Assembly (NCBI RefSeq): GCF_030695125.1
Contig: NZ_JAUYTP010000073.1
Coordinates: forward strand, 124,001-188,000
Source: Allobosea sp.
Lineage (GTDB): Bacteria > Pseudomonadota > Alphaproteobacteria > Rhizobiales > Beijerinckiaceae
Reading direction: 5' to 3'
Length of the DNA: 64,000 nucleotides
Positions within the stretch are counted from its first letter, which is position 1; each line of letters opens with the position of its first letter. Shown piece by piece: positions 23,394-47,452 of the stretch. The notes below the pieces were generated by a model that saw only the letters and a program-made list of their open reading frames with translations, was not told the DNA's origin and made no database searches. The position numbers and the translations under genes were made by a program.

Positions 23394-23789
23394 ATGCGTC
23401 TGGTTCCGGCGTCGATCGTGATCCTGTCCCTCGCCGCCGCGGGCGCCGGAGCTTCGGCGCGTGAACTCGCCGGGCGCTTCGGCTATCTCGGCGAGTGGGA
23501 CGTCAGCGCCAGCCTAGCCGAGGAGAAGGCGGGGCGGGCCGGGGCGCCGGCCTTCTCGGGCCCGGTGCTGATGAAGCACAACGCCGTCTGCGGTCCCGGC
23601 GAAACGCCGGAGAAGACCGGCCATATCCGGATCAGCCTGCGCGGCCAGCGCTACACCGCGCAAATGACGCTGGCCGGAGCCTCTTGCGCCTTCACCGGCA
23701 CCTTGTCGGAGAGCGCGCACAGCTTCGTCACCTGCGGCAGCGACCGGCAGATTCCGCTGCGCCTCTGGTTTCGGGGCACACGCCCCTAA
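23394..23789 (+). CDS. Small secreted hypothetical protein
   Basis: The protein has 131 residues from ATG at 23394 with GAGAGAAG upstream. The signal peptide is IVILSLAAAGAGASA. The mature part has GRFGYLGEWDVSASL, VLMKHNAVCGPGETPEKTGHIRISL and three Cys (AVC, ASC, VTC), giving a beta-rich periplasmic protein. No domain is recognised. Its stop overlaps the convergent caspase-FGE gene by 4 bp. Confidence 0.7.
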   Translation: MRLVPASIVILSLAAAGAGASARELAGRFGYLGEWDVSASLAEEKAGRAGAPAFSGPVLMKHNAVCGPGETPEKTGHIRISLRGQRYTAQMTLAGASCAFTGTLSESAHSFVTCGSDRQIPLRLWFRGTRP

Positions 23790-25633
23790 GGTTCGCGCAG
23801 GACCCTGAAGCCGTTGGTGAAGAAGCGCACATCGGCCTCGTATTTGAAGCGGGCGGCCGAGCGCAGATAGCGCGGATCGTTGTTGAAGGAGCCGCCGCGC
23901 AGCACGCGCTCGCGGCAGCCGGGCGGGTTGACGGCGGTGCCGTCGCGCGGGGTCGCCCGGTAGCTGTCGCTCCAGCAATCGGCGACCCATTCGGCCGCAT
24001 TGCCCGCCATGTCGTAGAGGCCGAAGCCATTGGCCGGGAACTGGCCGGTCTCGACAGCCTGCCGGCGGGTCGGCTCATTGCAGCCGACGCAGTTGGCGCG
24101 CTCCTTCACCATCGTCGCGCCCCAGGGATAGGTCGTCGTGGTGCCGCCTCGGGCGGCGTACTCCCATTCGGCCTCGCTGGGCAGGCGATAGCGCTGGCCG
24201 GTCCTGGCGGAGAGCCAGGTCAGGTAGGCGTTGGCGTCGTTCCAGTGGATGTCGGTGACCGGGCGCTTGCCGCGGCCCAGCCCGCGATCATTGGGGCGAT
24301 GGGTGCAGCCGCCCTGGTCGATGCAGGCGTCCCACTCCTCGAACGTCACCTCACGCAGGCCGAGATAGAAGGCGTTGCGGATGGTGACGGTGTGGACGGG
24401 CTTCTCGAACTCGTAGAGCTCGTTGGCGCCCATTTCGAACGTACCGGGCGCGATCAGGGTGAGTTCCGGGCAGCCCTCGCAATCGCGCAGCGTGCGCAGT
24501 GTCGCAGGGGGGGCCGCGGGCGCGGCCGGGCGGGCGGGTTCGCGCACCGCCGCGACCGGCCCTGCCGGCGGGCGGGCCGCCGGTGGTGATGGCGGCGCGG
24601 CGGGCGGGGAGGCGGCGGCGGCGTTCTGCCGTGCGGTGAACTGCTGCTCGCGCGTGCGGGCGAGACTGGCGAAGCGGCCATCGGGATAGGCTTCGAGATA
24701 GGCGCGGTACTCGGCCGGGTTCTCGCTCGAACGGATCGATTCCCAGAAGGCGAGCTCATAGGCGTCCTGCCGGGCGGCGGGGGATTCCGGCGGCGGCAGC
24801 GGGATGACGGCGCGGTTGTTCTGGGCGATCTGGGCGGGGCGCGCGAGCGGGGTGACGACCAGCCCCGCTGGCGGCTCCGAGGACGTCCAGATCTGCTGGC
24901 TGCGCCGCGTCAGCCGCGCGACGGCGTCGCGGGTGCGCGCCAGCGCCGCGGTCATGTCGAGGCCGGGCGTCCGGATGGCCTTGATCCATTCGTCGATCGC
25001 GGGATTGCCGCGGGCGCCGCCATCCGCAACGGTGCGGCCGGGCGCGGTGGTGAACATCACGCTGATCGCGTCCATGCGCTCGACCGCGAGCAGGCCTTTG
25101 GAGGGACCGGAGAGGTCCGCCTGCCAGGGGTTGTCGCGGCTGGCGTCGAGCACCACCAGCGCGCTGGCGGGCCGCGCCACGATCAGCGCGTCGAGCAGCA
25201 GGTCGAGATCGACCGCGGCCTGCGCGATCTCGGAGGCCGAGCGCAGGCGGGCATCGACCGGGACCAGGAAATTGCGGTTGCGCAGCTGCACCGCATGGCC
25301 GGCGTAAAACACGATCGCCTGGACGCCCGGTCGCAGCCTGCCGGCAAAACCCGCGATCGCGGCCTGCAGCGCGGGCCCGTTGGCGTCATCGGCCGTGACG
25401 ATGTCGAAGCCGCCGGTGCGCAGCGCAACGGCCACGGCGCGGGCGTCGACCGCCGCTTCCGGCACGGGCGCCTGCGGGTAACCGGCGTTGCCGATGACAA
25501 GGGCGACGCGGCCGGAGGCGGCGTCGCCAGTCTGCGCGCGTGTCGGGGACGCCAGCAGCAGCGCGGCGCAGGCCGCCAGCGACGCGCATCGCAACCAGGA
25601 CAGGCAGCGCAACCAGGACATGCCGTGCTTCAT
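23786..25633 (-). CDS. Secreted caspase-like / formylglycine-generating-enzyme-like fusion, probably catalytically dead
   Basis: The protein has 615 residues with a signal peptide ending near TRA-QT. The peptidase C14 fold spans about residues 41-270 (GRVALVIGNAGYPQAPVPEA, VFYAGHAVQL), but the usual DACR nucleophile is LDASRDNP: Ser165 (codon AGC) replaces Cys, and GHG is GHA at His113. A Pro/Ala-rich linker leads to a SUMF1 domain from about 395 (PGTFEMGANE, RLPSEAEWEYAARGG, GFGLYDMAGNAAEWV, VLRGGSFNND). The two Cys that follow GGS in true formylglycine enzymes are absent. Both domains therefore look like binding modules. The gene lies at the edge of the T6SS region. Confidence 0.85.
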   Translation of the reverse strand: MKHGMSWLRCLSWLRCASLAACAALLLASPTRAQTGDAASGRVALVIGNAGYPQAPVPEAAVDARAVAVALRTGGFDIVTADDANGPALQAAIAGFAGRLRPGVQAIVFYAGHAVQLRNRNFLVPVDARLRSASEIAQAAVDLDLLLDALIVARPASALVVLDASRDNPWQADLSGPSKGLLAVERMDAISVMFTTAPGRTVADGGARGNPAIDEWIKAIRTPGLDMTAALARTRDAVARLTRRSQQIWTSSEPPAGLVVTPLARPAQIAQNNRAVIPLPPPESPAARQDAYELAFWESIRSSENPAEYRAYLEAYPDGRFASLARTREQQFTARQNAAAASPPAAPPSPPAARPPAGPVAAVREPARPAAPAAPPATLRTLRDCEGCPELTLIAPGTFEMGANELYEFEKPVHTVTIRNAFYLGLREVTFEEWDACIDQGGCTHRPNDRGLGRGKRPVTDIHWNDANAYLTWLSARTGQRYRLPSEAEWEYAARGGTTTTYPWGATMVKERANCVGCNEPTRRQAVETGQFPANGFGLYDMAGNAAEWVADCWSDSYRATPRDGTAVNPPGCRERVLRGGSFNNDPRYLRSAARFKYEADVRFFTNGFRVLREP

Positions 25634-27611: not shown

Positions 27612-29132
27612 ATGATCCTCGCTGCCGGACTGCGTGTTGTGATCGGATGCGCGCTGCTGATGCTGGCTTTGCCGGCCGCGGCCAGCGAGCGCAGGGTCGC
27701 GCTCGTCATCGGCAATTCGAGCTATGCCAACGCCCCCGTCCTGCCCAACACCGTCAACGACGCGCGCGACATGGCGGCGTCGCTGCGCAAGGTCGGCTTC
27801 GAGGTGGTCGACGGTGTCGATCTCGACAAGCGCGGCATGGACCAAGCGGTGACGCGTTTCGCGCGGCTGGCGCAGGATGCCGACGCGGTGATGTTCTACT
27901 ATGCCGGCCACGGCCTGCAGTTCAACGGTGAGAACTACCTCGTGCCGATCGAGGCGCGGGTCGAAGACGAGATCGGCGTCCAGTACGAGACGACGCGGCT
28001 CAACGACGTCGTGACGGCGCTGAACTTCTCGCGCGGCGTCAAGATCATGGTGCTCGACGCCTGCCGGAACAATCCCTTCGTCGGCCAGCTCGCCAAGCGC
28101 CAGGCGACGCGCGGCTTCGCCGTCGGCAGCGGGCTCGCCCCCGTGGCGCGGGCGCAGGGCATGGTGATCGCCTATGCCACCCAGGCCAATGACGTCGCCG
28201 CCGACGGGGCGGGGCGCAACAGCCCGTTCACGGCCGCCCTGGTCCGCGAGATCGAGCAGCCGGGGCTCGAGGTGGCGACGATGTTCCGGCGCGTTCAGAA
28301 GAGCGTCTATGACGCGACCAATGGCCGCCAGACGCCGGAGTTGTCGCTCTCGCTGCTCGGCGATTTCTACCTGAACCGCGAGGAGACCGACAGTGACGTC
28401 TGGCGTCGCATCCGCGTCAACGAGGATCCGGCGGTCTATCACGACTTCATCGCGCGTTACCCGACGAGCTTCTTCACCATCGATGCGCGTACGCGGCTCG
28501 ACCTGATCGAGCGACGTGCCGGCGAGGCGAAGGAGCGCGAGGCGCTGGCGCGCGAGTTCGCTGCGCGCGAGCGTGCTTTGCTCGATCGTGTCGAGCGGGC
28601 CGAGAAGGTGCGCCAGCAGGCGGCGATCGATCTTGCCAGGCGCGACGGCGAGGGGGCGCAGGGTGCGGCGCCGGCTGTCGCCGCGCGGCCTGCCGGCGCC
28701 CTGGTCGGAACGGTGCGCCCTGTTCCCCTTCCCGGTCAGAGCGGCCAGGCGCGGGCGGAGCGGGAGCGACTCGCCGAGGAGGTGGTGCGCCGCGAGCGCG
28801 AACTCGCCTCGCTCGAAACCGAGAAGCGCCGCCTGGCCGACGAGCGCGTGCTGCTCGAGCAGGCGATGGCGGCGCGGATGGGCAGCCTGACCATGTCGCC
28901 GCCGGATCAGCCGAGCCTCTCGCGGTTGGCCCCGCCCTCGGTCGAGCGTTCGCTGACCGAGCGCACCGCGGCGCCGCCGCCTGCCATCGCGGCGCCGTCA
29001 GCCGCGCGTCCGCAGGCCGTGCGGGCGCAGAACGCCCGGCCCAGCGCCGCGGCCTGCAGCGAAATCCTGCTGCGCGCCCAGCTCGGAGAGCTGACCGCGC
29101 AGGCGAAGGAGCAACTGCTGCTGTGCCGCTGA
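27612..29132 (+). CDS. Secreted caspase-family (C14) protease with coiled-coil C terminus
   Basis: The protein has 506 residues with a signal peptide ending near AAA-SER. The C14 domain has the intact dyad: His100 in YYAGHG and Cys151 in LDACRNNPF; ALVIGNSSYANAP and DVAADGAGRNSPFTAAL are also typical. After about residue 290 a charged segment (RAGEAKEREALAREFAARERALLDRVERAEK, ERLAEEVVRRERELASLETEKRRLADERVLLEQ) is predicted coiled coil, and the C terminus has a paired Cys (AACSEILL, LLLCR). It is the first gene of the operon running to 34170, next to the T6SS. Its substrate is unknown. Confidence 0.88.
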   Translation: MILAAGLRVVIGCALLMLALPAAASERRVALVIGNSSYANAPVLPNTVNDARDMAASLRKVGFEVVDGVDLDKRGMDQAVTRFARLAQDADAVMFYYAGHGLQFNGENYLVPIEARVEDEIGVQYETTRLNDVVTALNFSRGVKIMVLDACRNNPFVGQLAKRQATRGFAVGSGLAPVARAQGMVIAYATQANDVAADGAGRNSPFTAALVREIEQPGLEVATMFRRVQKSVYDATNGRQTPELSLSLLGDFYLNREETDSDVWRRIRVNEDPAVYHDFIARYPTSFFTIDARTRLDLIERRAGEAKEREALAREFAARERALLDRVERAEKVRQQAAIDLARRDGEGAQGAAPAVAARPAGALVGTVRPVPLPGQSGQARAERERLAEEVVRRERELASLETEKRRLADERVLLEQAMAARMGSLTMSPPDQPSLSRLAPPSVERSLTERTAAPPPAIAAPSAARPQAVRAQNARPSAAACSEILLRAQLGELTAQAKEQLLLCR

Positions 29133-29168
29133 TCCACCGCGCCCCACTCTCCCTCGCCCGTCGCTGAA

Positions 29169-30389
29169 ATGAGCGGCCACCTGGTCCCGTCCTGGATGCT
29201 GCGTCGGTGGTGGGCCGCGATCGCGCGCGGCCCGATATCGGTTCTGCTGGCCCTGATGGCCATGCTGGTGCTGACCGTTGGCGCGCGGGCCCAGCCGGCA
29301 CCGCCCGTCCCGGCGCCGTTTCCCGAAGCGCTGCAGCGGGCGGCGGCCGATCTCTTCGGCAAGGCCAACCTCAGTGGCGATCGCATCGAACTGGTCATCG
29401 ATCCGCTGATCGACGCCGCATCGGGCGCGCAATCGGCGGCGACGCGCGCGATGCAGGAGGCGCTGATCGCGATGGTGCGGACCTCCTATCCGCGCTTCGT
29501 CGTGCAGCCCTTCACGGCGGAGGTTCTGGCGCGCGATCCGGTCGTGCTGGTCGGCACCTTCACGGCGATCAGCCAGGTCGGGGCCGATGGCCCGAGGGAT
29601 GCGTTCCGGATCTGCCTTACGCTGGCCGATCTCAAGTCCCGCACGGTGGTGTCGCGCGGGGTGGCGCGTGCGACGCCCGAGAACGTCGACGTCACGCCAA
29701 CGCTGTTCTTCCGCGATGCGCCGGTCTGGGCGAAGGACCAGGCCACCGACGCCTATGTGCAGACCTGCCAGGGCACGCCGCTGGGCGCGGGGCTCGACCC
29801 GGCCTATGTCGACCGCCTCGCCGCCAATGCGCTGATCCAGGACGGCATCGCCGAATACGAGGCCCAGCGTTTCCGCGAGTCGCTGGCGTTCTATCGCGCC
29901 GCCCGCAGGCTGCCGGGTGGCGACCAGCATCGCGTCCGGATCGGCACCTATCTCGCCAGCGCCAAGCTCGGTCGGCGCGACGATGCGGTCGATGCGTTCG
30001 GCGATCTCGTCGATTACGGGCTGTCCACCGACCAGCTCATGGTCCGGCTCCTGTTCCGGCCCGGCTCGACCCAGTTCATCGACAACCCGCAGACGACCGA
30101 GCCCTATCCGATGTGGCTGAGCCAGATCGCGACGCGCGTGCGCCAGAAGGGCGCCTGCCTCGAGATCGTCGGCCACAGCTCGCGCACAGGCACGCCGTCC
30201 CTGAACGAGCGGCTCTCGGTCCTGCGGGCGCAGTTCATCATGGACCTGCTGCTGACCGGCATGCCCGACGGACGCAGCCGGATGATCGCGAGCGGCCGTG
30301 GCTTCAAGGACAATCTCGTCGGCACCGGCAAGGACGACGCGAGCGATGCGCTCGACCGCCGGGTGGAGTTCAAGGTTATCGGCTGCTGA
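29169..30389 (+). CDS. OmpA-domain envelope protein
   Basis: The protein has 406 residues with an N-terminal signal/anchor (LALMAMLVLTVGARA). The middle part (about 60-200) contains LVGTFTAISQVGADGPRDAFRICLTLADLKSRTVV and then a short TPR-like segment (YEAQRFRESLAFYRAAR). The C terminus is an OmpA/MotB peptidoglycan-binding domain with LLFRPGSTQFID, CLEIVGHSSRTGTPSLNERLS and DRRVEFKVIGC. It probably tethers a complex to the cell wall. It is second in the caspase operon (37-bp gap). Confidence 0.85.
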   Translation: MSGHLVPSWMLRRWWAAIARGPISVLLALMAMLVLTVGARAQPAPPVPAPFPEALQRAAADLFGKANLSGDRIELVIDPLIDAASGAQSAATRAMQEALIAMVRTSYPRFVVQPFTAEVLARDPVVLVGTFTAISQVGADGPRDAFRICLTLADLKSRTVVSRGVARATPENVDVTPTLFFRDAPVWAKDQATDAYVQTCQGTPLGAGLDPAYVDRLAANALIQDGIAEYEAQRFRESLAFYRAARRLPGGDQHRVRIGTYLASAKLGRRDDAVDAFGDLVDYGLSTDQLMVRLLFRPGSTQFIDNPQTTEPYPMWLSQIATRVRQKGACLEIVGHSSRTGTPSLNERLSVLRAQFIMDLLLTGMPDGRSRMIASGRGFKDNLVGTGKDDASDALDRRVEFKVIGC

Positions 30390-30520
30390 AGGCGGTGCGC
30401 GGTGCGGCCTCCGGCGGCGCCGCGGGGCGGCTGTCCTTCGAACGGAGGAGGCGCGGCGGCCCAGGTCAGGCTTCGATGCCGGAGGTGGTCCGCAAGGGGC
30501 AACAGGGACGGGCGGCGCGG

Positions 30521-32077
30521 ATGAACGGCACGGACATCAACCCCTATGACGCCGTCGCCTATCCCGGGCATGCCTTCGCGCAGACCCATCCGGCCCGGCT
30601 GGCGACGATCGCGCACGCCCATGGCATGGCGGCCGCGCCTGCCGCGGCGATGCGGGTGCTTGAACTCGGCTGCGGGCGGGGCGGCAACCTGCTTCCGATG
30701 GCCGCCCAATATCCCGGTAGCGCGTTCGTCGGCATCGATCTCAGCGGCAGCGCGATCGCGCTGGCGCAGCGGGCCACGACGGAGCTTGGCCTCGGCAACC
30801 TGGCCTTCCACCACCGCAACATCATGGATGTCGGGCCCGAGCTCGGGCGGTTCGACTACATCCTGGTCCATGGCGTCTATTCCTGGGTGCCCGATATCGT
30901 GCGCGAGCGGATCATCGCGATCTTCGGCGAGTTGCTGGCGCCGCAAGGCATCGCCTATGTCAGCTACAATGCCCTGCCGGGCTGCCGGCTGCGCGATCTC
31001 GCCCGCGACGTGATGCTCTATGCCACGCGCGACATCGCCGAGCCGCAGGAGCGGGTGCGGGTGGCGCGCGCGGCGCTGAAAGCCGTCGCCGAAGCCAGCG
31101 ACGCCGAGACGTTCCACGGGGCGGCGCTGCGGCAGAGGCTGCAGCAACTCGACGACACGCCCGACAATGTGCTGTTTCACGACGATCTCAACCCGGGCGC
31201 GCGCGCCTTCGCGCTGCATGAGGTGCTGGGCGCCGCCGAGCAGCACGGCCTGCAGTTCCTGGCCGAAGCCTCTTTCCCCAACATGTATGGCGCTGCCAAG
31301 GGGCCGGCGCAGGCGATGCTGGCGGGCATCCCCGTCGAGGAGGCGGCCCGCCGCGAGCAGACGCTCGACCTGCTGATCGGGCGGGCCTTCCGCGAGACGC
31401 TGCTCTGTCGGCAGGACGTTCCGCTGCGGCGCGGGGTCAAGCCCGGCGCCTTGAAACCCTATCACCTGGCGGCCCAGGCCCGGCTGGTCGAAGCCGGGGA
31501 GGGCGAGGAGACGCGGTCGGGCGTCGATCGCTTCGCCTTCGACGCGGGGGTGAAACTCTCGGTCGACCTGCCGCTCTGCAAGGCGGCGCTGCGGCGGCTG
31601 GGCGCGGCGTGGCCGGCCGGTGTCGCCTTCGACGATCTCGTCGCCCAGGCGGTGGCGGATGTCGGCGCTGCCTTGCAGGGCGATGTCGCGGCGGAGATCG
31701 CCCGGCTCGACGAGGCGCTGCTGGCGATCTTCAAGGCTGGCCTGCTCGACATCAGGCTCGAGCCCCCGGCGCTGACGACGACGATTTCGGAACGGCCGCT
31801 GGCAAGCGCGGTGGCGCGCTGGCAGGCGACGACGTCCCGGGAGGTCACGGATCTGCGCCATCGCATGGTGGCGCTCGATGGCGTCGTCGTCCGAAAATTC
31901 GTGGGCCTGCTCGACGGCTCGCGCACGCAGGAGACCATCCTGAGCGATCTCAACGCCTTCCTCGACGAGGCGCATGGCTCGGGGCGCGATGTCGGCGATT
32001 TGCCCCGACTCGCCACGGCCGAGGCGGTGGCGGTCCACCTGAAGGATGTGGCGCGGCTGGGGCTGCTCGTTTCCTGA
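30521..32077 (+). CDS. Class I SAM methyltransferase with MethyTransf_Reg domain
   Basis: The protein has 518 residues from ATG at 30521; an alternative ATG lies at 30476. The methyltransferase begins NPYDAVAYPGHAFAQTHPARLATIAHAHGM, with SAM motif I LELGCGRGGNLLPMA, FVGIDLSGSAI and FDYILVHGVYSWVPD. The middle region (about 210-310) is a methyltransferase-regulatory domain, and the C terminus is helical. The target is unknown. No signal peptide is seen, so it is cytoplasmic while its operon neighbours are exported. A role in modifying a T6SS component is speculation. Confidence 0.85.
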   Translation: MNGTDINPYDAVAYPGHAFAQTHPARLATIAHAHGMAAAPAAAMRVLELGCGRGGNLLPMAAQYPGSAFVGIDLSGSAIALAQRATTELGLGNLAFHHRNIMDVGPELGRFDYILVHGVYSWVPDIVRERIIAIFGELLAPQGIAYVSYNALPGCRLRDLARDVMLYATRDIAEPQERVRVARAALKAVAEASDAETFHGAALRQRLQQLDDTPDNVLFHDDLNPGARAFALHEVLGAAEQHGLQFLAEASFPNMYGAAKGPAQAMLAGIPVEEAARREQTLDLLIGRAFRETLLCRQDVPLRRGVKPGALKPYHLAAQARLVEAGEGEETRSGVDRFAFDAGVKLSVDLPLCKAALRRLGAAWPAGVAFDDLVAQAVADVGAALQGDVAAEIARLDEALLAIFKAGLLDIRLEPPALTTTISERPLASAVARWQATTSREVTDLRHRMVALDGVVVRKFVGLLDGSRTQETILSDLNAFLDEAHGSGRDVGDLPRLATAEAVAVHLKDVARLGLLVS

Positions 32078-32224
32078 GGCGCCGTCCTGCGGCTGGCGGC
32101 GGACGGCACGCCGTTGTCGCGGCCATGCGGCTCGCATATCCTGACGCAGCGGTATCCAGCAGGGGCGATGGGCCCACTCGCCCGACCGCGGCTTTCCAGG
32201 GACCGGCAGTGCTGGCGAGGCCCG

Positions 32225-33841
32225 ATGAGTGAACGCTTCAGGCAGTTCCAGGCCGTCTTTCCGGAAGAGGCCTGCCTCGACGCTCTGATGCGCGCGCGCC
32301 ATGGCGGCAGCAGCCTGACCTGCCCGGCCTGCAGCCGTCCTGGCCGTTTCGAGCCGCGCGTGAAGCTACGCGCCTGTTCCTGCGAGCATTGCAACTACAT
32401 GCTCCAGCCCGGGGCCGGTACGGTGCTCGACAATCGTCGCACGCCGCTGCAGCTCTGGTTCTTCGCGCTCAAGACCATCGCCGAACTGGGCGACAAGGCG
32501 GCTGCCGGCGTGATCGAGCGGGAGGCGCGGGTGCCCGCGCTCACCGCGCGTCGGCTGGTCGCCGAATTGACGGCCCTCGACGCCCGTGGCGAAGACTGGT
32601 TCGAGGCTTTGCGACGCGGTGTCTCCGGCGAGCGACCTGTCGCGATCACGAAGGCTGTTTCCGGCACCCTCGATTCCACGGACTCGATACCGAAGCCGCT
32701 CGCGTCGCCCGGGCCTGAAATCGCGGCGCGCGGCGTGTCGGGGCGGGCGATGATGATCGGGGTCGCGGTCGGGATCGTCTGTCTCACTGCGGCCGTGCTC
32801 GGTATTGCCCTGAACAAGATGGGGCAGGGGGAGGCTCCCCCGGATCCGGACATGGTCGCGAGCCTGGCCGCTCCGGCGCTGCAGACGGCGGCGCGTCCCT
32901 CGCTGATCCTGTCCTCGGTCGAGAGCGATCTGGAGGCGGCGCGGCAGGCGACGGAATTTGCGCTGAAGGCCGATCCGACGCTGGCCGAGATCAAGGCTCA
33001 GGTCGAAGCGGCGCCGGAAATCCCGGTCGTGCCGCTGACGCAGCCGCCGTCCAACATCCTCCTGGTGCCGCCGAAACTGCCCGCCGGCCAGGCGGCGCCG
33101 GGCCTGCGCTCGCGCATTCCGCAGGCGCCGATCACGACCGGCGGCGACCCCGAGCAGTTGCTGACCTTCGGGCCGATCCGGATCCGGCGGCATCTCGTCG
33201 AGACGATCGTGCGCGCCGGCAAGGTGGTGGGCGCGGATCCGACGCTGCTGATGGCGGTGGCGGACAAGGAATCGTCGTTCTCGACCTCGGTTCAGGCCAA
33301 GACGTCCTCGGCCACGGGCCTCTACCAGTTCATCGAGCAGACCTGGCTCGGCGTCGTCAGCGAATTCGGAACGAAGCACGGTCTGGCGGCGGAGGCGAAG
33401 CTGATCGGGCGCAATGGCCGCCAGTTCGTCGTGGCCGATGCGGCCGAGCGCCAGCGCATCCTCGATCTCAGGCGCGAGCCCTATCTCTCGGCGCTGCTGG
33501 CCGGCGAGATGCTGAAGCGCGATACGCTGCGGCTGGAGAAGGCCATGGGCCGCCACCTCACCGGTGGCGAGATTTACCTGATCCATTTCCTTGGGCCGGA
33601 CGCCGCCCAGACCTTCATCGAGACGATGGAGGAAAAGCCCGACGTCAAGGCGGCCGATCTGCTGCCGCGGCCGGCCCAGGCGAACCGGCCGATCTTCTAT
33701 GCGGATGCCGGCGGCGAGACCAAGACGCTGTCGGTCTCCGAGGTCCACCGCAAGTTCAACGAGATGATCAAGGTCAGGCTCGACCGCTACAAGACGGTGC
33801 GCCCTGCCGCGCCCCAGCAGGCGGAGCGCGCGAAGAAGTAG
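32225..33841 (+). CDS. IS1595-like zinc-ribbon / transmembrane / lytic transglycosylase fusion
   Basis: The protein has 538 residues from ATG at 32225. The N terminus resembles the zinc ribbon and helix of IS1595-type transposases: CPAC at 33-36, CEHC at 53-56, then GAGTVLDNRRTPLQLWFFALKTIAE and an HTH-like REARVPALTARRLVAEL. One membrane helix (about 175-197) follows, then a linker and a periplasmic SLT domain (ADKESSFST with Glu about 348, KTSSATGLYQFIEQTW). The transposase DDE core is absent, so this is a domesticated module. Orientation suggests cytoplasmic ribbon and periplasmic muralytic domain, perhaps opening the wall for the T6SS. Confidence 0.83.
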   Translation: MSERFRQFQAVFPEEACLDALMRARHGGSSLTCPACSRPGRFEPRVKLRACSCEHCNYMLQPGAGTVLDNRRTPLQLWFFALKTIAELGDKAAAGVIEREARVPALTARRLVAELTALDARGEDWFEALRRGVSGERPVAITKAVSGTLDSTDSIPKPLASPGPEIAARGVSGRAMMIGVAVGIVCLTAAVLGIALNKMGQGEAPPDPDMVASLAAPALQTAARPSLILSSVESDLEAARQATEFALKADPTLAEIKAQVEAAPEIPVVPLTQPPSNILLVPPKLPAGQAAPGLRSRIPQAPITTGGDPEQLLTFGPIRIRRHLVETIVRAGKVVGADPTLLMAVADKESSFSTSVQAKTSSATGLYQFIEQTWLGVVSEFGTKHGLAAEAKLIGRNGRQFVVADAAERQRILDLRREPYLSALLAGEMLKRDTLRLEKAMGRHLTGGEIYLIHFLGPDAAQTFIETMEEKPDVKAADLLPRPAQANRPIFYADAGGETKTLSVSEVHRKFNEMIKVRLDRYKTVRPAAPQQAERAKK

Positions 33842-33888
33842 ACGGACGTGGCCGCCGGCCCGCCCGAACCGCAGAGGAGACCAGGACC

Positions 33889-34170
33889 ATGGCGGCCAAC
33901 CGTTTCGAGCAGGTGGACGAACCGCAGCCGGACGCGATCACGCTCAGTCTGAGCGCCGGCGACGGCGAGACCCACGGCCAGATTTCCTGTCCGGCCGAAC
34001 TGGCGGGCGGGCATCTCGTCAACGACTTCCTGAGCGACCCGATGCCGCCGGTCGATGCCTTCCGGGCCGCGGTGCGGCTCGCCAACGAGATCCGGGCGCC
34101 GATCGTCGTCGCGGATCCGCAGGGGCTCTGGCAGGACGATTGGGGCGTGCTTTACCGCGAGGCCGACTGA
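33889..34170 (+). CDS. Small hypothetical protein
   Basis: The protein has 93 acidic residues with no signal peptide, membrane helix or known motif; it includes AGGHLVNDFLSDPMPPVDAFRAAVRLANEIRAPIVVADPQG. It lies 47 bp after the zinc-ribbon transglycosylase on the same strand (GGAGACCAGGACC upstream of ATG) and converges on ppkA. Probably the last gene of the caspase operon. Confidence 0.65.
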   Translation: MAANRFEQVDEPQPDAITLSLSAGDGETHGQISCPAELAGGHLVNDFLSDPMPPVDAFRAAVRLANEIRAPIVVADPQGLWQDDWGVLYREAD

Positions 34171-34190: not shown

Positions 34191-36272
34191 TTACTCGATC
34201 CGGAAATAGCGCACGCCCAGCCCGAGCGGTTCGCCCTGGCGCAGGACGTCCTGCTGGAGGCTGGCGAAGAAATCCGTCGACGGGGTGGGGTTGGGGCCCG
34301 ACAGGGCCGGCAGCGGTGCCGTGCTGACGAAGGTCAGGACGGTCTGGGGCCGCGGCCCGCCCCCGGCCGATTCCAGCTTGAGGTTGAAGGTGGCGCGCCG
34401 TCCGTCGCGGCGCAGATAGCTGCCGAGATTGTAGACGAGCCCGTCGTCACCGATCAGCACGACGGCGACGTTGCGGCCGCCGTCATTGTCGATGGTCCCG
34501 CTCAGCACCTCGCCGCTCTTCATGTTGAAGGCGTTGATCTGGAGCCGCGGGGTGCGGTCGATGTTGTCCCCGAGCGCGCGCAGGAAATCCGCCATCGGGC
34601 ATTGCGCCGCCGTGATCGGCCGCAGATGGATCTGCGCCTCGAAGCCCTGCGCCGCCTTGAAGGTGGTGTCGAAGGCGACGAAGGGCTCGGTGCGGTTGCC
34701 AAAGCCCTCCAGAACCGCGCGCGTCGCGGTCAACTCGGTCGGCCAGAGGAAGAAGCACGGGCCGCCGTCATAGGTCGCGATGTAGCGCTGCACGCGCTCG
34801 ATCGGCGGGCGGGGCGGCTGAGCGACCGCGATCTGGGCCGGGTCGCTGCGCCCCGGCGCTGCGGGCGGTGTCTCCGGGCGCGGTTGCGCGGCAGGCGGCA
34901 CGGCCGGCGTCGCCGGCGGGCGCGCCGGCTCGGCCACGGTCGGCTGCGGCATGCGCGGATCGGGCCGGGTCGGGGCCGCGACCGGCGGCGGGGCGACGAC
35001 GGCGGTCTGCGGCTCGGGTCGCGGCGGCGAGGGCTGCGTCGGCTGCGGTTGTGGCTGGGGCTGGGGCGGTGCGGCGGCGGCGGCCGGCGGCTCGTTGAGC
35101 GCGGGCGGCGGGTTCGGGGGCGGCTGCGTCACAGGCGGCGGGGTCACCACGACGGGTGTCGGTACGGCGGGCGGCTCGATCAGCTCCGGCACGCGGTTCT
35201 GGGCCTGCGCCGGGTTGGGTGTCTGGGCCGGGGTCTGGGCCTGGGCCGGCGGGTCGCTGCGGGTTTCGTTGAGAGCCGGAGGCGGGGCGCTGCCGCGCGG
35301 CGGCTCGTCGTTCAGCAGGGTCCAGCCATAGAATCCGCCGCCCGCCAGCAGGGCGAGCGCGGCGATGCCGGCGACGGCGCGCAGCGGGGACCTGCCGGCC
35401 GCGGCCGCGGCGGCCGGCGCCTGCGGCTGCCAGGCGGCGACCTCCGACATGTCGGCGAAGCGCTCGGCCGGGTCGGCGGCGAGCATGCGGGCCAGGAGCG
35501 GGCGGATGCGGGCGTCGATGCCCGAGAGGTCGGGCAGGCGACGGCGCTTCTCGAGGATCTGGACCTGGCTGCCGCCCATGTCGAGCGGCTTGCCGGTCAT
35601 CGCTTCGGCGAGGACGAGGCCGAAGCTGTACATGTCGGAGCGGCCGGTGACGTCGCCGCCATAGAGCCCGAGCTGCTCGGGCGAGACGTAGTTGTACTTG
35701 CCGGCGAAGCCCGAGCCGATGACCGTGCCTTCGCCCAGGATGCTGGAGCGGGCGATGCCGAAATCGATGATCTTGGCGCGGGCGATGCTGCCGCCGGGCA
35801 GGATGATGTTGTCCGGCGAGACGTCGCGGTGGACGATGCCCAGCAGATGGGCGGCGTGGAGGCCCGGTCCTATGCGCCGGCGCAGCACATCGACCTCGTC
35901 GAGGCTCAGCGGCGCCTGCTTGATGCGCTCCGAGAGCGGCTGGCCGTCGACGAACTCCATCGCCAGATAGGGCGACTGCGTCCCCGGATCGATGGTGAAG
36001 ACGTAATAGCGGACGATGGCTTCGTTGTAGAGGTTGTGCAGGGCGGCGGCCTCGCGCCGGAACAGGGCGAGCGCCGCCTCGTCGCGCGCGAGTTCCGGGC
36101 GGATCATCTTGATCGCCACCGCGTCGCCGGTCTGGATGGCGCGGCCCTTGTAGACCTCGCCCATGCCGCCGACCCCGATCAGCCGCTCGACCTCGTAGAT
36201 GCCGTTCAGGGTGGTCCCGACGGAGACGGCGCCGGCGCGGGGCGCGAAGATGGTGCGCTCGGAGTCGCTCAT
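34191..36272 (-). CDS. ppkA: T6SS-associated Ser/Thr protein kinase
   Basis: The protein has 693 residues from ATG at 36272. The kinase domain has the Gly loop GVGGMGEVYKG, VAIKMI lysine, catalytic HRDVSPDN, DFG in IIDFGIARSS and SPEQLGLYGG. A helix (AVAGIAALALLAGGGFYGW) anchors it in the inner membrane, followed by a roughly 150-residue Pro/Gln/Ala linker and a periplasmic C-terminal domain (CFFLWPTELTATRAVLEGFG, DGLVYNLGSYLRRDGRR). PpkA phosphorylates TagH/Fha or TssL to activate T6SS assembly. It overlaps pppA by 4 bp as the last gene of the tssK operon. Confidence 0.92.
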   Translation of the reverse strand: MSDSERTIFAPRAGAVSVGTTLNGIYEVERLIGVGGMGEVYKGRAIQTGDAVAIKMIRPELARDEAALALFRREAAALHNLYNEAIVRYYVFTIDPGTQSPYLAMEFVDGQPLSERIKQAPLSLDEVDVLRRRIGPGLHAAHLLGIVHRDVSPDNIILPGGSIARAKIIDFGIARSSILGEGTVIGSGFAGKYNYVSPEQLGLYGGDVTGRSDMYSFGLVLAEAMTGKPLDMGGSQVQILEKRRRLPDLSGIDARIRPLLARMLAADPAERFADMSEVAAWQPQAPAAAAAAGRSPLRAVAGIAALALLAGGGFYGWTLLNDEPPRGSAPPPALNETRSDPPAQAQTPAQTPNPAQAQNRVPELIEPPAVPTPVVVTPPPVTQPPPNPPPALNEPPAAAAAPPQPQPQPQPTQPSPPRPEPQTAVVAPPPVAAPTRPDPRMPQPTVAEPARPPATPAVPPAAQPRPETPPAAPGRSDPAQIAVAQPPRPPIERVQRYIATYDGGPCFFLWPTELTATRAVLEGFGNRTEPFVAFDTTFKAAQGFEAQIHLRPITAAQCPMADFLRALGDNIDRTPRLQINAFNMKSGEVLSGTIDNDGGRNVAVVLIGDDGLVYNLGSYLRRDGRRATFNLKLESAGGGPRPQTVLTFVSTAPLPALSGPNPTPSTDFFASLQQDVLRQGEPLGLGVRYFRIE

Positions 36273-37078
36273 GGCGTGTCGGTCTCCTGCATGCGCCTGT
36301 TCGGCATCCACCGGGTCGTCCGGTCGTCCCTGCGGCTATAGCGCATGATGATCACCGTAACGTTGTCGCGCGCTCCGCGCTGCAGGGTGAGCTGCAGCAG
36401 GGCGTTGCAGGCCTGCTGCGCGCCCCTCTCCTCGACCGCTTCCAGGATCTCGGCCTCCGCGACATGCTCGGTCAGGCCATCGGAGCAGAGCACGAAGACG
36501 TCGCCATCCTCGATCTCGCCGCTGTCGAGGTCGAGTTCGGGCACGTCGTGGACGCCGATCGCGCGGGTGATGACATGGCGTCGCGGCGAGAGCCTGGCTT
36601 CCGCGGCGGTCATCACGCCGCGCTCGACCAGTTCCTGGACCTCGGTGTGGTCGCGCGAGATCTGCAGGATCTGGCCGGCACGGATGAGGTAGATCCGGCT
36701 GTCGCCACACCAGACGCAGGCGAAGTGACGCTCGTGGACGAGCAGGACCGCCAGCGTCGAGCCCATTGCCGCGCCGTTGCCCTCCGCGATGTGGCGGCGC
36801 AGCGTCGCATTGGCGTCCAGCACGCCATTCTCCAGCCGGGCCAGCAGGTCGGGCGCCGACTGGGTCTTGCCGATGCTCTCGATCGCGGCGGCCACCGTGG
36901 CGCTGGCGAGCGCGCCGTTCTCATGACCGCCCATGCCGTCGGCGACCGCCCAGATGCCGAATTCGGGCCGGACGACGAGATTGTCCTCGTTGGCGCTGCG
37001 GATGCGGCCGACATGGCTGACGGCGCCGGTCTCGAAGGCCGATGCGGTCTGGCTCGGATTCTGGCTGAGATCGCTCAT
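36269..37078 (-). CDS. pppA: T6SS PP2C-type protein phosphatase
   Basis: The protein has 269 residues. PP2C metal motifs are intact: SANEDNL, WAVADGMGGHENG, GSTLAVLLVHE, CGDSRIYLIRAG, LCSDGLTEHV and ARDNVTVIIMR. It reverses PpkA phosphorylation of TagH/TssL and so resets the secretion machine. It overlaps ppkA and tagF by 4 bp each, so kinase, phosphatase and TagF are translated together. In some alphaproteobacteria TagF and PppA are one fused protein; here they are separate. Confidence 0.93.
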   Translation of the reverse strand: MSDLSQNPSQTASAFETGAVSHVGRIRSANEDNLVVRPEFGIWAVADGMGGHENGALASATVAAAIESIGKTQSAPDLLARLENGVLDANATLRRHIAEGNGAAMGSTLAVLLVHERHFACVWCGDSRIYLIRAGQILQISRDHTEVQELVERGVMTAAEARLSPRRHVITRAIGVHDVPELDLDSGEIEDGDVFVLCSDGLTEHVAEAEILEAVEERGAQQACNALLQLTLQRGARDNVTVIIMRYSRRDDRTTRWMPNRRMQETDTP

Positions 37079-37782
37079 GACACGGCCCGCCCCGGTTCGA
37101 GGAACGCATCGAAATGGCCGGTCAGCAGGCCGGCGAAGAGATAGGGGTCGGGCAGCCCGTGCCCGACCAAAGCGAGCGGCTCGAAATTCTCGCCGCCAAC
37201 GGTCCAGAAGCAGGTCGAATGGGCATAGGCGCGGGCGTGATCCTCGACCCGCAGGGCGGCGAGCCGGGCGGGAAAGCCGGCCGCGTCCAGCGCGGTGACG
37301 ATGGTGCCGTCCGAGAGGCGCACCATATCCTGCGGCGGCGGCGCGAGCAGCGAGTCATTGGGGACGGCTAGCCGCGCCAGGCGCTCCGAGACGGCCTCGA
37401 AGCTCGCCCCCGGATCGAGGGCCTGCAGCAGGAAATCCTCGATCCCGGCATACCAGGCGTCCTGCGGGTCGAGTTCCGGATGCGGGATCGCGCCGCCGGG
37501 CTGCGCCAGGGCGAAGACGGTCAGCGGAAAGTAGCGGCCGACGCCGTCGACGGAGGGCATGAAGGCCCCGGCGACGGCCTGCCCGCACAGGCCCTGGCCG
37601 ATCCAGAAGCGCCAGATCGGCGCGTTGAGGAAGGCCTCCTGCCAGCGTCCGGCCAGCGCGAGCCGGCTCGCGGTCAGCCCGCCCTGGAGCCAGGCCTCGT
37701 AGACCTTGAGGAAGGCCGCCGGCGCGTTCACCGCGATGAAGTCGCGCTTGGCCGGCAGCTTCCCGAACAGGCCGCAGCTCAT
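37075..37782 (-). CDS. tagF: T6SS-associated protein TagF
   Basis: The protein has 235 residues. The N-terminal GLFGKLPAKRDFIAVNAPAAFLKVYEAWLQGGL and WRFWIGQGLCG with GRYFPLTVFA are the DUF2094/TagF signature. TagF is a post-translational repressor of T6SS assembly that binds TagH/Fha and works independently of or alongside the PpkA/PppA switch. It lies 4 bp after tssM and overlaps pppA. Confidence 0.92.
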   Translation of the reverse strand: MSCGLFGKLPAKRDFIAVNAPAAFLKVYEAWLQGGLTASRLALAGRWQEAFLNAPIWRFWIGQGLCGQAVAGAFMPSVDGVGRYFPLTVFALAQPGGAIPHPELDPQDAWYAGIEDFLLQALDPGASFEAVSERLARLAVPNDSLLAPPPQDMVRLSDGTIVTALDAAGFPARLAALRVEDHARAYAHSTCFWTVGGENFEPLALVGHGLPDPYLFAGLLTGHFDAFLEPGRAVS

Positions 37783-37786
37783 CGCC

Positions 37787-40700
37787 TCAGATCCCCGACG
37801 GGCAGCGGATCTCCCGCAGGGCGGGCAGGATCAGCGGGTTCTTCAGCGAGCCGACGCCGAACTGATAGCCGACCTGGCGCCCGCCCGCCGCCAGCGTCAG
37901 CCCGACATTGTCGCCCTGGCGCAGCACAGAGCCGGTGTCGAGCAGGCGGAAGAAGGACCAGACGCCGTCGCGCTCGAACAGCTTGATTTCGCCGGATGGC
38001 GCGCTTGGCCCCGAGGAGAAGAAGCCGCCGCCGAAGACGCCGCCGCCGCTCGCCCCGCCCAGCGTCAGCGTGATCGCGGTGCGGCCGATGCCGGCGCCCG
38101 GCCACATCACCGGGGCGGGCGTGTTGACGCCCTGCTGGCTCGTGACGGTGAAGCCGTTGATCTCGAGCTTGGCATTGGCGGCATCCGCCGAGAGCGCGGT
38201 CGGCACCACGATCATCTGGAAGGAGGGCAGGTTGCCGCCGGTCGGGAAGAAGGCTTCCCGAATCTCGCTGGCGCGCTGGAACTCGCGCAGTGTCGTCGCG
38301 GAGAGCGAGCGGGCGACGCGGCTGTCGGCGCGCCAGCTCCACTGCGCCTTGGAGCTGTCGACATAGGGTTCGAGCCGCTCCTTGTAGAACTTGTCCATGA
38401 TGCCGCCGGGCGCGAACAGGCGGGCGAAATCGGCCAGCGGCACGTCGCGCGCGCTGCCCTTCACGAAGGGATAGCGGTTGGTCAGGATCTCCGTGCAGAC
38501 GCGGCTGACCTGATCGCCCAGCGCCTGGCGCAGCAGGGCGACGGTGGCGCCGGTGGCATCGCCCTCGAAGTCGTTGACGGCCGACACGACCATAGCGCCG
38601 AAGGGGGCGGGGTAGCGCGAGGAATTGGCGCGCAGCGTCGCGATCAGCGGCACCAGCGCGGCATTGGCCGCAGCCGCCTGGGCCGGGTTGGTCGCGGCGG
38701 TGGCTAGGTTCTGGTTGATCTCGGACAGGACCTGCAGGAGCTGGTCGACCGGGCGGCGGCCGAGATCGCCCTCGACCAGGACATGGAAGGGCTTGAACTG
38801 GGCCTCGATATCGGCGCCGAGCGCCTCGTTGCCGCCGCCGCCGAGCACGCGCTCGACGCCGGGCGCGCTGAGCGGGAGATTGGTGCCCAGCCGGCTCAGC
38901 GCCTCGCTCGCGCGCTTCTCCAGAACATCGGTCGCGGCCGCTGCGGCCGCCTTGCGGGGGGAGGCGCGCTCCTTGGTGAGCTGCGTCTCGTCGCGGACGG
39001 ATTCGAGGATCTGCTTGAAGGGCGAGGTCGGCGCGGCCATCGCGCTGAGCGCGACATATTGCGGCTTGTCGGCGTTGAGCGGGCGCAGCTTGAGCCGCGC
39101 CAGGGTGCGCTGCCAGGAGGCGACGAAATCGCGGCTGTAGAGCTTGAGCAGGTCCTGGAAGAGCGTGGCGTATTGCGAGATGATCGCCTGCTGGTCGACA
39201 TTCTCGCCCAGCACCCAGCGCTCCTTCTCGATGCGGTCGCCGATGTCGCCGAGGCGGTCGACGAAGGCGTTCTGGAAGCCGTCATAGGTGTAGAAATAGG
39301 GCACGCGGACCGCGTCGAGGTCTTCGCCGCCGACGCCTTCGAAAGCCAGGCGCACGTCGGAGCCGCCGCGGCGGGCCGCGACCCAGTCCTTCTGGCTCTG
39401 CGAGCGGGCCTGGGTGCGCAAGAGCTCATAGGCGCGTTCCGCGATGCTGAGGCGGCGCAGCGTGCGCTGGCTGTTCTCGATCAGCGACTGGTTGAGCTTG
39501 ACCAGCGGCTCGGCCTCGCCGTCGTCGAGATCGAGCATCGCGACCAGATGCTCCTCCAGCGCCTCGCGGCCCTTCGCGTTGGCGGCGCCGGGGAAGAGGT
39601 TCTCGGCCCAGTCCAGCCGCATCCAGGCGATGACGAGGTCGCGGTCGAGCTTCGCCTGGCCGCCGACCATCATGTAGACCTTGAGCGCCTCGTAGACGAA
39701 GCCGGGATTGGTCTGGTTGGCCTCGAGCTGCTCCTCCAGCCGGAAGATAATGCGCGAGCGCAGCATCCGCTCCAACGCCTGCTGATAGGTCAGTTCGGCC
39801 GCGTTCTGCAAGCGGGCGCGCTGGCTGAGGCCGAAGGTGGCGGCGGTCGGCGTCGGCTCCTCGCGGGTGGCGTAGCCCGCCGGCAGGTGCCGCAGCTTAT
39901 GCAACAGCGGCAGGACGCGGCTGAAATTGCGTTCGGAGATCGTCGTCTCCTGCAGCACCGGGGCGGCGCTGGAGCGGTAGTCGGAGAGGCCGTAATTGGT
40001 TGCGGTGATCAGGTCGCTGTTGCGCGAGAAGCTCGTCCACCACAGGCCGAGCGCGGCGAGCGAGACGAGTGCCACCGTGGCGAAGCCGGCGGCCCGCAGC
40101 AGGGTGGCGCGGCGCGCGGCGCCGAGGTCGGTCGAGACCCAGCCTGACTCGCCGATGATGACCTTCTGGATCAGGTCGGTCAGGAAATAGCTCTTGCCGC
40201 GGCCGGAATAGGCGCCGGCGCTGGCGTGGCTGCTGCCGAAATTGCGCGAGAGCGCCCCGATCAACTGGTCGATCGGCGTGCCTTCCTGCGTGCCGGAGGT
40301 GAAATAGAAGCCGCGCAGCGTCGCATTGGCATGATAGCGCGTCGGCTCGAAGACGCGGCCGAGAAAATCGGTAATCGAGCGCTTCAGCGTCGCCATCTGG
40401 CTCGGGAAGCCGAAGATCTGGGCACGCGCGGTCGGGTTGGCCTCGTCCTGCAGCCGGTCGGGGAGGCGCTCGTTCAGCCGCTCGATCAGCGCATCATATT
40501 CGGGTGCGACGTCGCCGATCATGTTGCGGGTCTTGTCGCCGGTCTGGAAGGTGTGTCCCCAGACCATCCGGCGCTGCGGCTCGGAGAGCCCGCCGAAATA
40601 CTCGTTGAAGCCGGCGATCAGGTCGGCCTTGGTGAAGACGGCATAGACCGGGAAGTCGACCTTCAGCCGCTCGTTCAGCTCGAGCAGCCGGTTGCGGATC

Positions 40701-41401
40701 GCGTCGGCATGGGCGGCGATCTCCTCGGGGCTCGACGTCAGCAGATCCTCGACGCTGATCGCCACCATGACGCCGTTGATCGGCTGGCGCGGGCGATGGG
40801 TCTTGAGCAGATCGAGGAAGGCAAGCCAGCTCGCCTTCTCGGCCTTCGCGTCGGTGTCCTGCGTGGTGTAGCGGCCGGCCGTGTCGATCAGCACGGCCTC
40901 CTCGGAAAACCACCAGTCGCAATAGCGGGTGCCGCCAACGCCGGCGATCGCGGCCGGCGCCGCGCCACCGCGGGCGAGCGGGAATTTCAGCCCGGAATTG
41001 ACCAGCGCGGTCGTCTTGCCGGCGCCGGGCGGGCCGATGATGACGTACCAGGGCAGGTCGTAGAGATAGTCGCCGCCATCCTTGCCGCGGGCGCGGCGCA
41101 GCGTCGCCAGCGCGTCGCGCATCGAGGCCGACAGCGCGGCACCGTCGCCTGTCGCCTCCTGCTGCTGTTCCAGCGCCTCGGTGAGCGCGGCGGTGGCGCG
41201 GCGCCGGCGGATCACGATCAGCGCGATCCAGGCCAGCGCGCCGAGCGCCAGCAGCAGGACGATCGGCAGCCGCACCCAGACCGAGTCGAACGGGCGGACG
41301 TCGCCGACGGCAAGGAACGGCGCGCCGAACCAGACGAGCAGGCCAAGCGCCAGCGTCCCGACGGTGATGGCGGCGATTCTGAGCCAGGTGGCGAGGTTCA
41401 T
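37787..41401 (-). CDS. tssM: T6SS membrane complex protein TssM (IcmF)
   Basis: The protein has 1204 residues, the usual size. Two N-terminal membrane helices (about 8-30, 45-64), a cytoplasmic NTPase domain with Walker A GPPGAGKTTAL (123-131) and SVEDLLTSSPEEIAAHADAIRNRL, a third helix (FATVALVSLAALGLWW, about 430) and a long periplasmic part follow. It spans the envelope with TssL and normally TssJ, which is not encoded in the window. Intact Walker A suggests NTP binding. It follows tssL by 14 bp. Confidence 0.95.
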   Translation of the reverse strand: MNLATWLRIAAITVGTLALGLLVWFGAPFLAVGDVRPFDSVWVRLPIVLLLALGALAWIALIVIRRRRATAALTEALEQQQEATGDGAALSASMRDALATLRRARGKDGGDYLYDLPWYVIIGPPGAGKTTALVNSGLKFPLARGGAAPAAIAGVGGTRYCDWWFSEEAVLIDTAGRYTTQDTDAKAEKASWLAFLDLLKTHRPRQPINGVMVAISVEDLLTSSPEEIAAHADAIRNRLLELNERLKVDFPVYAVFTKADLIAGFNEYFGGLSEPQRRMVWGHTFQTGDKTRNMIGDVAPEYDALIERLNERLPDRLQDEANPTARAQIFGFPSQMATLKRSITDFLGRVFEPTRYHANATLRGFYFTSGTQEGTPIDQLIGALSRNFGSSHASAGAYSGRGKSYFLTDLIQKVIIGESGWVSTDLGAARRATLLRAAGFATVALVSLAALGLWWTSFSRNSDLITATNYGLSDYRSSAAPVLQETTISERNFSRVLPLLHKLRHLPAGYATREEPTPTAATFGLSQRARLQNAAELTYQQALERMLRSRIIFRLEEQLEANQTNPGFVYEALKVYMMVGGQAKLDRDLVIAWMRLDWAENLFPGAANAKGREALEEHLVAMLDLDDGEAEPLVKLNQSLIENSQRTLRRLSIAERAYELLRTQARSQSQKDWVAARRGGSDVRLAFEGVGGEDLDAVRVPYFYTYDGFQNAFVDRLGDIGDRIEKERWVLGENVDQQAIISQYATLFQDLLKLYSRDFVASWQRTLARLKLRPLNADKPQYVALSAMAAPTSPFKQILESVRDETQLTKERASPRKAAAAAATDVLEKRASEALSRLGTNLPLSAPGVERVLGGGGNEALGADIEAQFKPFHVLVEGDLGRRPVDQLLQVLSEINQNLATAATNPAQAAAANAALVPLIATLRANSSRYPAPFGAMVVSAVNDFEGDATGATVALLRQALGDQVSRVCTEILTNRYPFVKGSARDVPLADFARLFAPGGIMDKFYKERLEPYVDSSKAQWSWRADSRVARSLSATTLREFQRASEIREAFFPTGGNLPSFQMIVVPTALSADAANAKLEINGFTVTSQQGVNTPAPVMWPGAGIGRTAITLTLGGASGGGVFGGGFFSSGPSAPSGEIKLFERDGVWSFFRLLDTGSVLRQGDNVGLTLAAGGRQVGYQFGVGSLKNPLILPALREIRCPSGI

Positions 41402-41415
41402 GGGTTCGCCCTCCC

Positions 41416-44183: not shown

Positions 44184-44361
44184 CCGGGTCTCGCTCACTC
44201 AAAAGCATGCCAGCAACCTTATACGGGTCACCCACAAGCGTCACCAAGCGAATGGTAACTGCAAGCAAGGCTGCGGCCATCATTGCAACGAAGGATGCAC
44301 GGTTGCGCCAGGACGGGCAGTCCAGCAGAATCGCGCCCACACTGGCGAAGAGGAGCCCCCG

Positions 44362-46843: not shown

Positions 46844-46897
46844 GGCGGGGAATCCGGGCGCGGCGCACGGTCGGCCGCCGTCTTTCGCGGGCTGTGC

Positions 46898-47452
46898 TCA
46901 GGAGGTCGGCTTGCCGTCGTCATCAGCCAATCGAATGCATGCTTCGACGCAATTGCGCAATGCGGCCTGGTGCTCGCGGCCCGTGAGACGGCCGAGCGCC
47001 GTCAGCACCGCGATGCGTGCCATCTTGGCGGTGAGGTCGGGCGGGCAGGGAACGGCATGGCCCGCCACCATGCTGCCGCCGGAGTAGCCCGCGGCGAAAG
47101 CGACCCAGGTGCCCGGCGAGGCGCTGTCGCCCGCATCGGCTGCAGCCAGCGCGGCCCGGCGCGTCTCGTCGCGGGGATCGCGGACCCAGGCCTCGGCGGC
47201 CGCCAGCCCCTGGTCCTGCAGCGCGCCCGGGGCCTGCATCGCGCGCAGCGCCTGCGCCGCCCACCAGACCGCCTCGCGGCGCGGCAGGACGAAGGCGCAA
47301 AAGCCGATCGCTTCGGCGGGCGCCGGGCCCAGCGCCAGTGCCCGGGCGAACGCCAGAGGATGCTCGACGCTCGGCCGGGTCGCGACGACCTTGCCGAGGG
47401 CAGGGAAGGTCTCGAACACCTCCCTGGCGGTGCTGAAGCGCAGGCGGGACAT
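46898..47452 (-). CDS. T6SS-linked protein of unknown function between vgrG and tagH
   Basis: The protein has 184 residues, mostly helical (FETFPALGKVVATRPSVEHPLAFARAL, AAEAWVRDPRDETRRAALAAADAG, LTGREHQAALRNCVEACIRLADD). No signal peptide or membrane helix. It may belong to a conserved T6SS-associated family (DUF6931-like, from memory). It lies 6 bp after vgrG and 54 bp before tagH. A VgrG-linked adaptor or an immunity-like role is possible; no activity is readable. Confidence 0.7.
   Translation of the reverse strand: MSRLRFSTAREVFETFPALGKVVATRPSVEHPLAFARALALGPAPAEAIGFCAFVLPRREAVWWAAQALRAMQAPGALQDQGLAAAEAWVRDPRDETRRAALAAADAGDSASPGTWVAFAAGYSGGSMVAGHAVPCPPDLTAKMARIAVLTALGRLTGREHQAALRNCVEACIRLADDDGKPTS

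What the first reader, a model, noticed from the sequence alone, without database searches (positions are those of the whole stretch)
27612..34170. Caspase-OmpA-methyltransferase-zinc-ribbon transglycosylase operon attached to a T6SS
Five co-directional genes combine a secreted caspase, a peptidoglycan-binding OmpA protein, a cytoplasmic methyltransferase with regulatory domain, a membrane-spanning transglycosylase and a small acidic protein. They end convergently on ppkA. I know of no described system with this composition. It could be a T6SS-linked envelope sensing or self-defence module in which wall damage triggers proteolysis.
Basis: inference. Interest (0 to 1): 0.68.

Follow-up and report, generated by a model that had tools for sequence, protein, structure and literature searches.

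The report
T6SS accessory genes: methyltransferase, transglycosylase, caspase
Beside a bacterial toxin-injection machine (type VI secretion system) of Bosea sit three genes that are inherited with it, among them a cell-wall-cutting enzyme fused to a DNA-binding piece of a jumping gene, plus exchangeable caspase-like proteases that recur next to this kind of machine across the order.

Summary
The five genes are real, but not one unit. In Bosea, the methyltransferase, the zinc-ribbon transglycosylase and (in 19 of 20 loci) the small protein form a core convergent on ppkA. Methyltransferase and transglycosylase occur in all 45 Bosea genomes with this T6SS and in one more whose T6SS lies on other contigs; 21 genomes without it lack them (one distant methyltransferase). 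Caspase and OmpA protein are separable: both in 11 of 20 loci, neither in 7.

The transglycosylase is a chimera: an N-terminal zinc ribbon and helix-turn-helix from an IS1595-type transposase, one membrane helix, and a periplasmic GH23 domain with invariant catalytic Glu. Among 80 relatives, 49 of 51 with the zinc ribbon lie beside T6SS genes (the other two genomes have one); 0 of 29 without it do. The methyltransferase is an outer-membrane-type protein lysine methyltransferase, also T6SS-linked in five other lineages. Secreted caspases lie within 15 kb of tssM in 26 of 34 order members with this T6SS subtype, against 1 of 23 with a divergent subtype.

Best reading: a T6SS accessory island whose transglycosylase opens the wall for the apparatus. 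Damage-triggered proteolysis is untested. I found no published description; the library is partial.

The parts
27612..29132 (+). secreted orthocaspase (PF00656), intact His-Cys dyad; exchangeable accessory gene of the T6SS locus
29169..30389 (+). exported protein with C-terminal OmpA-like domain (sub-threshold Pfam match); travels with the caspase
30521..32077 (+). PKMT-type protein lysine methyltransferase (SAM domain, PF10119, PF21782), predicted cytoplasmic; core gene
32225..33841 (+). T6SS-linked chimeric lytic transglycosylase: residues 1-134 IS1595-transposase-like zinc ribbon and helix-turn-helix, membrane helix about 170-200, GH23 domain about 311-500; core gene
33889..34170 (+). 93-aa conserved protein without known family; core gene, convergent on ppkA also in Microvirga and G357
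34191..36311 (-). PpkA-like Ser/Thr kinase with C-terminal domain conserved in these T6SS loci
36269..37078 (-). PppA-like PP2C phosphatase
37075..37782 (-). tagF position (235 aa; named from position and conservation in T6SS loci, family not scanned)
37787..44198 (-). TssM, TssL (long form with OmpA domain), TssK
45482..49315 (-). FHA protein TagH, DUF6931, VgrG
49429..56917 (+). OmpA-domain protein, TssA, TssB, TssC, Hcp-like, TssE-like, TssF
60820..62145 (+). M23 peptidase, second candidate wall-cutting enzyme at the far end of the T6SS cluster
23786..25633 (-). secreted pseudo-orthocaspase (Cys to Ser) with FGE-like domain; co-occurs with the caspase-OmpA block

Best explanation
The region is an accessory island of a T6SS. 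Shown by sequence: a core of methyltransferase, transglycosylase and small protein is inherited with one T6SS lineage, and caspase genes are exchangeable residents of the same flank. Inferred: the transglycosylase is a T6SS-dedicated lytic enzyme. It is held in the inner membrane by one helix, its GH23 domain opens peptidoglycan locally for the trans-envelope complex, and its cytoplasmic zinc ribbon and helix-turn-helix, taken from an IS1595-type transposase, place or regulate it at the T6SS, or bind DNA. Inferred: the methyltransferase methylates lysines of a T6SS or envelope protein. Inferred with least support: the periplasmic caspase cuts an envelope substrate when the T6SS is in use or the cell is attacked.
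For: Co-inheritance in 67 Bosea-genus genomes: 46 with both genes, all with the T6SS; 21 without this T6SS, none with the transglycosylase (Fisher P 2e-16 before phylogenetic correction). Zinc-ribbon proteins 49/51 beside T6SS genes and 51/51 in T6SS-bearing genomes, in Bosea, Chelatococcus, Microvirga, Enterovirga and Methylobacterium; relatives without the ribbon 0/29. Catalytic KES motif in 80/80, CxxC-16-CxxC in 51/51. N-terminal domain homologous to true IS1595 transposases, one well-supported branch between the two sets. Known precedents for T6SS wall enzymes: MltE (PMC5841429) and TagX (PMC5061870). PKMT-type genes within about 20 kb of T6SS genes in five further lineages. Caspase within 15 kb of TssM: 14/18, then 12/16 in a second set chosen without looking at caspases (expected 0.5 each), against 1/23 for the divergent subtype.
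Against: No experiment. Chelatococcus and Methylobacterium carry the transglycosylase without the methyltransferase or small gene, so the core is not obligate outside Bosea. Five Bosea genomes have a more divergent T6SS without it, so that subtype assembles otherwise. An M23 peptidase is also in the cluster and could be the wall opener. In one genome (L204) the zinc-ribbon enzyme is far from the T6SS. Enrichment P values ignore shared ancestry.
Confidence: 0.6

Rival explanations
1. The chimeric transglycosylase is a one-component membrane regulator of ToxR-like layout: the periplasmic GH23 domain senses or processes wall fragments and the cytoplasmic zinc ribbon-HTH binds T6SS promoters.
For: Layout cytoplasmic zinc ribbon-HTH, one membrane helix, periplasmic domain; the N-terminal domain descends from a DNA-binding transposase region and keeps its four Cys ligands in 51/51; the Methylobacterium ortholog also gives a weak MarR HTH hit.
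Against: The catalytic Glu motif is invariant in 80/80, which a pure sensor would not need; DNA binding is not tested; the HTH could serve protein contacts.
Confidence: 0.2
2. One reading: an envelope sensing or self-defence module in which wall damage triggers caspase proteolysis.
For: Caspases are secreted, have intact dyads and are enriched next to this T6SS subtype; a pseudo-caspase-FGE gene lies nearby, and FGE-like proteins are a reported T6SS immunity family (Lopez 2021, cited in PMC9612521, not read here); a weak similarity links the PpkA C-terminal domain to a DUF4384-bearing caspase.
Against: Caspase and OmpA are absent from 7 of 20 Bosea loci that keep the core; no sensor-protease link was shown; the DUF4384 similarity is weak (E 8e-4 in a small set).
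Confidence: 0.12
3. The genes are bystanders that share a gene-rich accessory region with the T6SS and travel with it by linkage alone.
For: The caspase-OmpA-DUF4399-FGE block comes and goes; the 5' neighbours differ between Bosea clades.
Against: Repeated T6SS linkage of caspases, PKMT-type genes and the ribbon-bearing transglycosylase in other families and at other positions of the cluster.
Confidence: 0.08

Closest known systems
T6SS peptidoglycan enzymes MltE (E. coli) and TagX (Acinetobacter)
   Same: Wall-cutting enzyme linked to T6SS assembly (PMC5841429, PMC5061870); MltE is also a lytic transglycosylase and a weak fold match.
   Different: Here a single-pass inner-membrane protein with a transposase-derived cytoplasmic domain; MltE is a lipoprotein and TagX an L,D-endopeptidase.
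Outer-membrane protein lysine methyltransferases (Rickettsia PKMT1/PKMT2, Acinetobacter KmtA)
   Same: Domain make-up and sequence; PF10119 and PF21782 both above cut-off.
   Different: Known substrates are OmpB and a trimeric autotransporter (PMC11784438); here the gene sits in T6SS loci and the substrate is unknown.
IS1595 / ISXO2-type transposases
   Same: Zinc ribbon and HTH of residues 1-147 align with true transposases.
   Different: The DDE domain is gone and replaced by a membrane helix and GH23 domain.
Alphaproteobacterial orthocaspases and pseudo-orthocaspases
   Same: p20-only caspases, including trypsin-QC-DUF4384 forms, as surveyed in PMC6426788.
   Different: That survey does not mention secretion systems; here they cluster with one T6SS subtype.
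phiKZ gp144 lytic transglycosylase
   Same: Closest solved relative of the GH23 domain.
   Different: Phage endolysin; no membrane helix or zinc ribbon.

Membership tests
T6SS gene cluster | TssM, TssL, TssK, TssB, TssC, VgrG, TssF by curated models next to the finding | tested here: met
   Hcp and TssE match just below cut-off
OM protein lysine methyltransferase (PKMT) | SAM methyltransferase domain + PF10119 + PF21782 above cut-off | tested here: met
OM protein lysine methyltransferase (PKMT) | methylates lysines of an outer-membrane protein | not testable with these tools
   needs mass spectrometry
GH23 lytic transglycosylase | catalytic Glu in the SLT fold | tested here: met
   PF01464 above cut-off
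IS1595 transposase | zinc ribbon of PF12760 | tested here: inconclusive
   below cut-off (ortholog E 2e-4), but homology to true IS1595 transposases E 1e-19
IS1595 transposase | DDE_Tnp_IS1595 domain | tested here: not met
   absent; hence not a transposase
T6SS-dedicated wall enzyme (works like MltE/TagX) | genetic association with T6SS | tested here: met
T6SS-dedicated wall enzyme (works like MltE/TagX) | needed for Hcp secretion and killing | not testable with these tools
   needs a mutant
Active orthocaspase | p20 domain with His-Cys dyad | tested here: met
Known anti-phage defence system (PADLOC) | complete set of system components | tested here: not met
   only partial domain matches: caspase, ZorB OmpA domain, mad2 methyltransferase domain
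ToxR-like transmembrane one-component regulator | cytoplasmic DNA-binding domain, one membrane helix, periplasmic domain | tested here: inconclusive
   layout present; DNA binding not testable

The most novel reading that the evidence does not exclude
A T6SS in which a domesticated transposase DNA-binding domain, tethered through the membrane to a wall-cutting enzyme, couples peptidoglycan remodelling to T6SS gene control or placement, while lysine methylation and a periplasmic caspase add two further layers of post-translational control next to the PpkA/PppA kinase-phosphatase pair.
Probability: 0.15. Interest if true: 0.85.

Novelty: new variant of a known kind. Interest (0 to 1): 0.62.

Why it matters
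How T6SS machines get through the cell wall is known for only a few enzymes; this would add a dedicated, membrane-tethered one and a case of a transposase DNA-binding domain reused in an envelope machine. The caspase link gives bacterial caspases of this order, whose roles are mostly unknown, a concrete context that can be tested by simple deletions.

Tried and rejected
Five-gene single operon: rejected by neighbourhoods in 20 loci. G004 as a T6SS-free carrier: rejected, TssC is on another contig. Anti-phage defence system: only partial domain matches in PADLOC. Fold of the small protein: good model (pLDDT 88) but no significant PDB match. Whole transglycosylase model: poor overall (pLDDT 62) with a good N-terminal domain; only the GH23 part matched. 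PpkA C-terminal domain as DUF4384: weak, kept as a lead only. Paper searches for caspase or lysine methyltransferase with T6SS gave nothing relevant. An interim notebook entry is corrected here: 11 of 20 loci, not 13, have both caspase and OmpA.

Full report
Observation. The five genes exist as described, on the + strand, convergent on a ppkA-like gene; the flanking T6SS is confirmed by curated models for TssM, TssL, TssK, TagH, VgrG, TssB, TssC and TssF. The window lies in a draft genome of a genus whose named members are Bosea. The caspase and the OmpA-like protein have export signals, the methyltransferase and small protein have no hydrophobic segment, and the transglycosylase has one membrane helix at about 170-200.

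What each gene is. The methyltransferase resembles rickettsial PKMT1/PKMT2 over its length (E 1e-65) and carries PF10119 and PF21782; relatives of this family methylate OmpB in Rickettsia and a trimeric adhesin in Acinetobacter (PMC11784438). The transglycosylase domain is closest to phiKZ gp144. Its N-terminal 147 residues match ORFs of about 300 aa in many genomes, one of which is a true IS1595 transposase with zinc ribbon and DDE domain. The four Cys ligands are invariant, and a tree of the domain separates T6SS proteins from transposases by one strongly supported branch (100/99), which fits a single domestication. The caspase has an intact His-Cys dyad. The small protein has no family and no fold match.

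Is it one unit? In 20 Bosea loci, methyltransferase and transglycosylase are always adjacent and convergent on the ppkA side of the T6SS, with the small gene in 19; caspase and OmpA are both present in 11, caspase alone in 2, neither in 7, where several loci carry a different, divergently oriented caspase; such a caspase, read in one locus, is fused to an outer-membrane barrel. In Microvirga massiliensis (L191) caspase, methyltransferase, transglycosylase and small protein stand in the same order and direction, converging on ppkA.

Is it T6SS-linked? In 67 genomes of the genus, 45 have this T6SS by TssK at 88% identity or more; all 45 have methyltransferase and transglycosylase. One further genome has both genes, lacks TssK and TssM in its assembly, but has TssC at 91% on another contig. 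Of the 21 others, 5 with a divergent T6SS and 16 without a TssK match, none has the transglycosylase and only one has a distant methyltransferase. In a scan of a public genome collection, 80 relatives of the transglycosylase were kept: 51 with the zinc ribbon, of which 49 are beside T6SS genes and two are in genomes with TssC elsewhere; 29 without it, none beside T6SS genes. In Chelatococcus the enzyme is convergent on ppkA, and in Methylobacterium and Enterovirga it directly follows ppkA in the same direction.

Methyltransferase outside Bosea. PF10119 occurs in 31 of 348 order genomes and TssM in 58. Near T6SS genes it occurs in G357 (beside ClpV, with the small gene convergent on ppkA), G393 (beside tssB-tssC), G289, G116 and G337; it is not linked in G245, G267, G192 and G175. 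A rough chance estimate for 5 of 10 is about 2e-8.

Caspases. In 18 genomes with this T6SS subtype, 14 have a caspase gene within 15 kb of TssM (expected 0.6); part of this set had been looked at before. A second set picked only by TssM gave 12 of 16 (expected 0.5); the four misses have fragmented assemblies. With divergent TssM (38% identity or less) it is 1 of 23. The sets share ancestry, so the P values (1e-16 and lower) overstate the case, but hits come from at least eight families. Architectures vary: trypsin-QC-pseudocaspase-DUF4384, caspase-Sel1, caspase-barrel, pseudocaspase-FGE.

Mechanism. The best-supported step is that the ribbon-bearing transglycosylase serves the T6SS, most likely by opening the wall, as MltE and TagX do elsewhere (PMC5841429, PMC5061870). 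Why it keeps a transposase-derived zinc ribbon-HTH in the cytoplasm is open: recruitment to the machine, or DNA binding. The substrate of the methyltransferase is unknown; Hcp (8.9% Lys), TssB and TssC are the lysine-rich proteins of an otherwise lysine-poor locus, which makes them candidates only.

Novelty. No paper found links PKMT-type methyltransferases or caspases with T6SS clusters; the library covers only openly licensed papers.

Noticed in passing
window 23786-25633 (-): Secreted pseudo-orthocaspase (catalytic Cys to Ser) fused to an FGE-like domain, beside two DUF4399 genes; co-occurs with the caspase-OmpA block in Bosea.
   Followed up: partly
window 60820-62145 (+): M23 peptidase at the far end of the T6SS cluster; M23 genes also lie beside ppkA in L116 and L128.
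   Followed up: partly
L114, L118, L121: One family carries an active orthocaspase plus a trypsin-pseudocaspase (DUF4384 in L118) beside ppkA; in L118 and L121 a roughly 107-110 aa unknown gene lies between them and ppkA.
   Followed up: partly
L047:14592-16787, L052: Caspase fused to an outer-membrane beta-barrel domain (L047; L052 carries a similar gene), divergent from the core, in Bosea loci.
   Followed up: partly
L122:7659-9314, L129:9642-11435: Separate proteins carrying the PpkA C-terminal domain without a kinase, next to ppkA.
   Followed up: no
window 46898-47452 (-): DUF6931 gene between VgrG and the FHA protein, conserved in most T6SS loci examined.
   Followed up: no
L168: Bosea sp. 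CRIB-10 has a split T6SS: the small gene is followed directly by fha, and TssK lies about 260 kb away.
   Followed up: no
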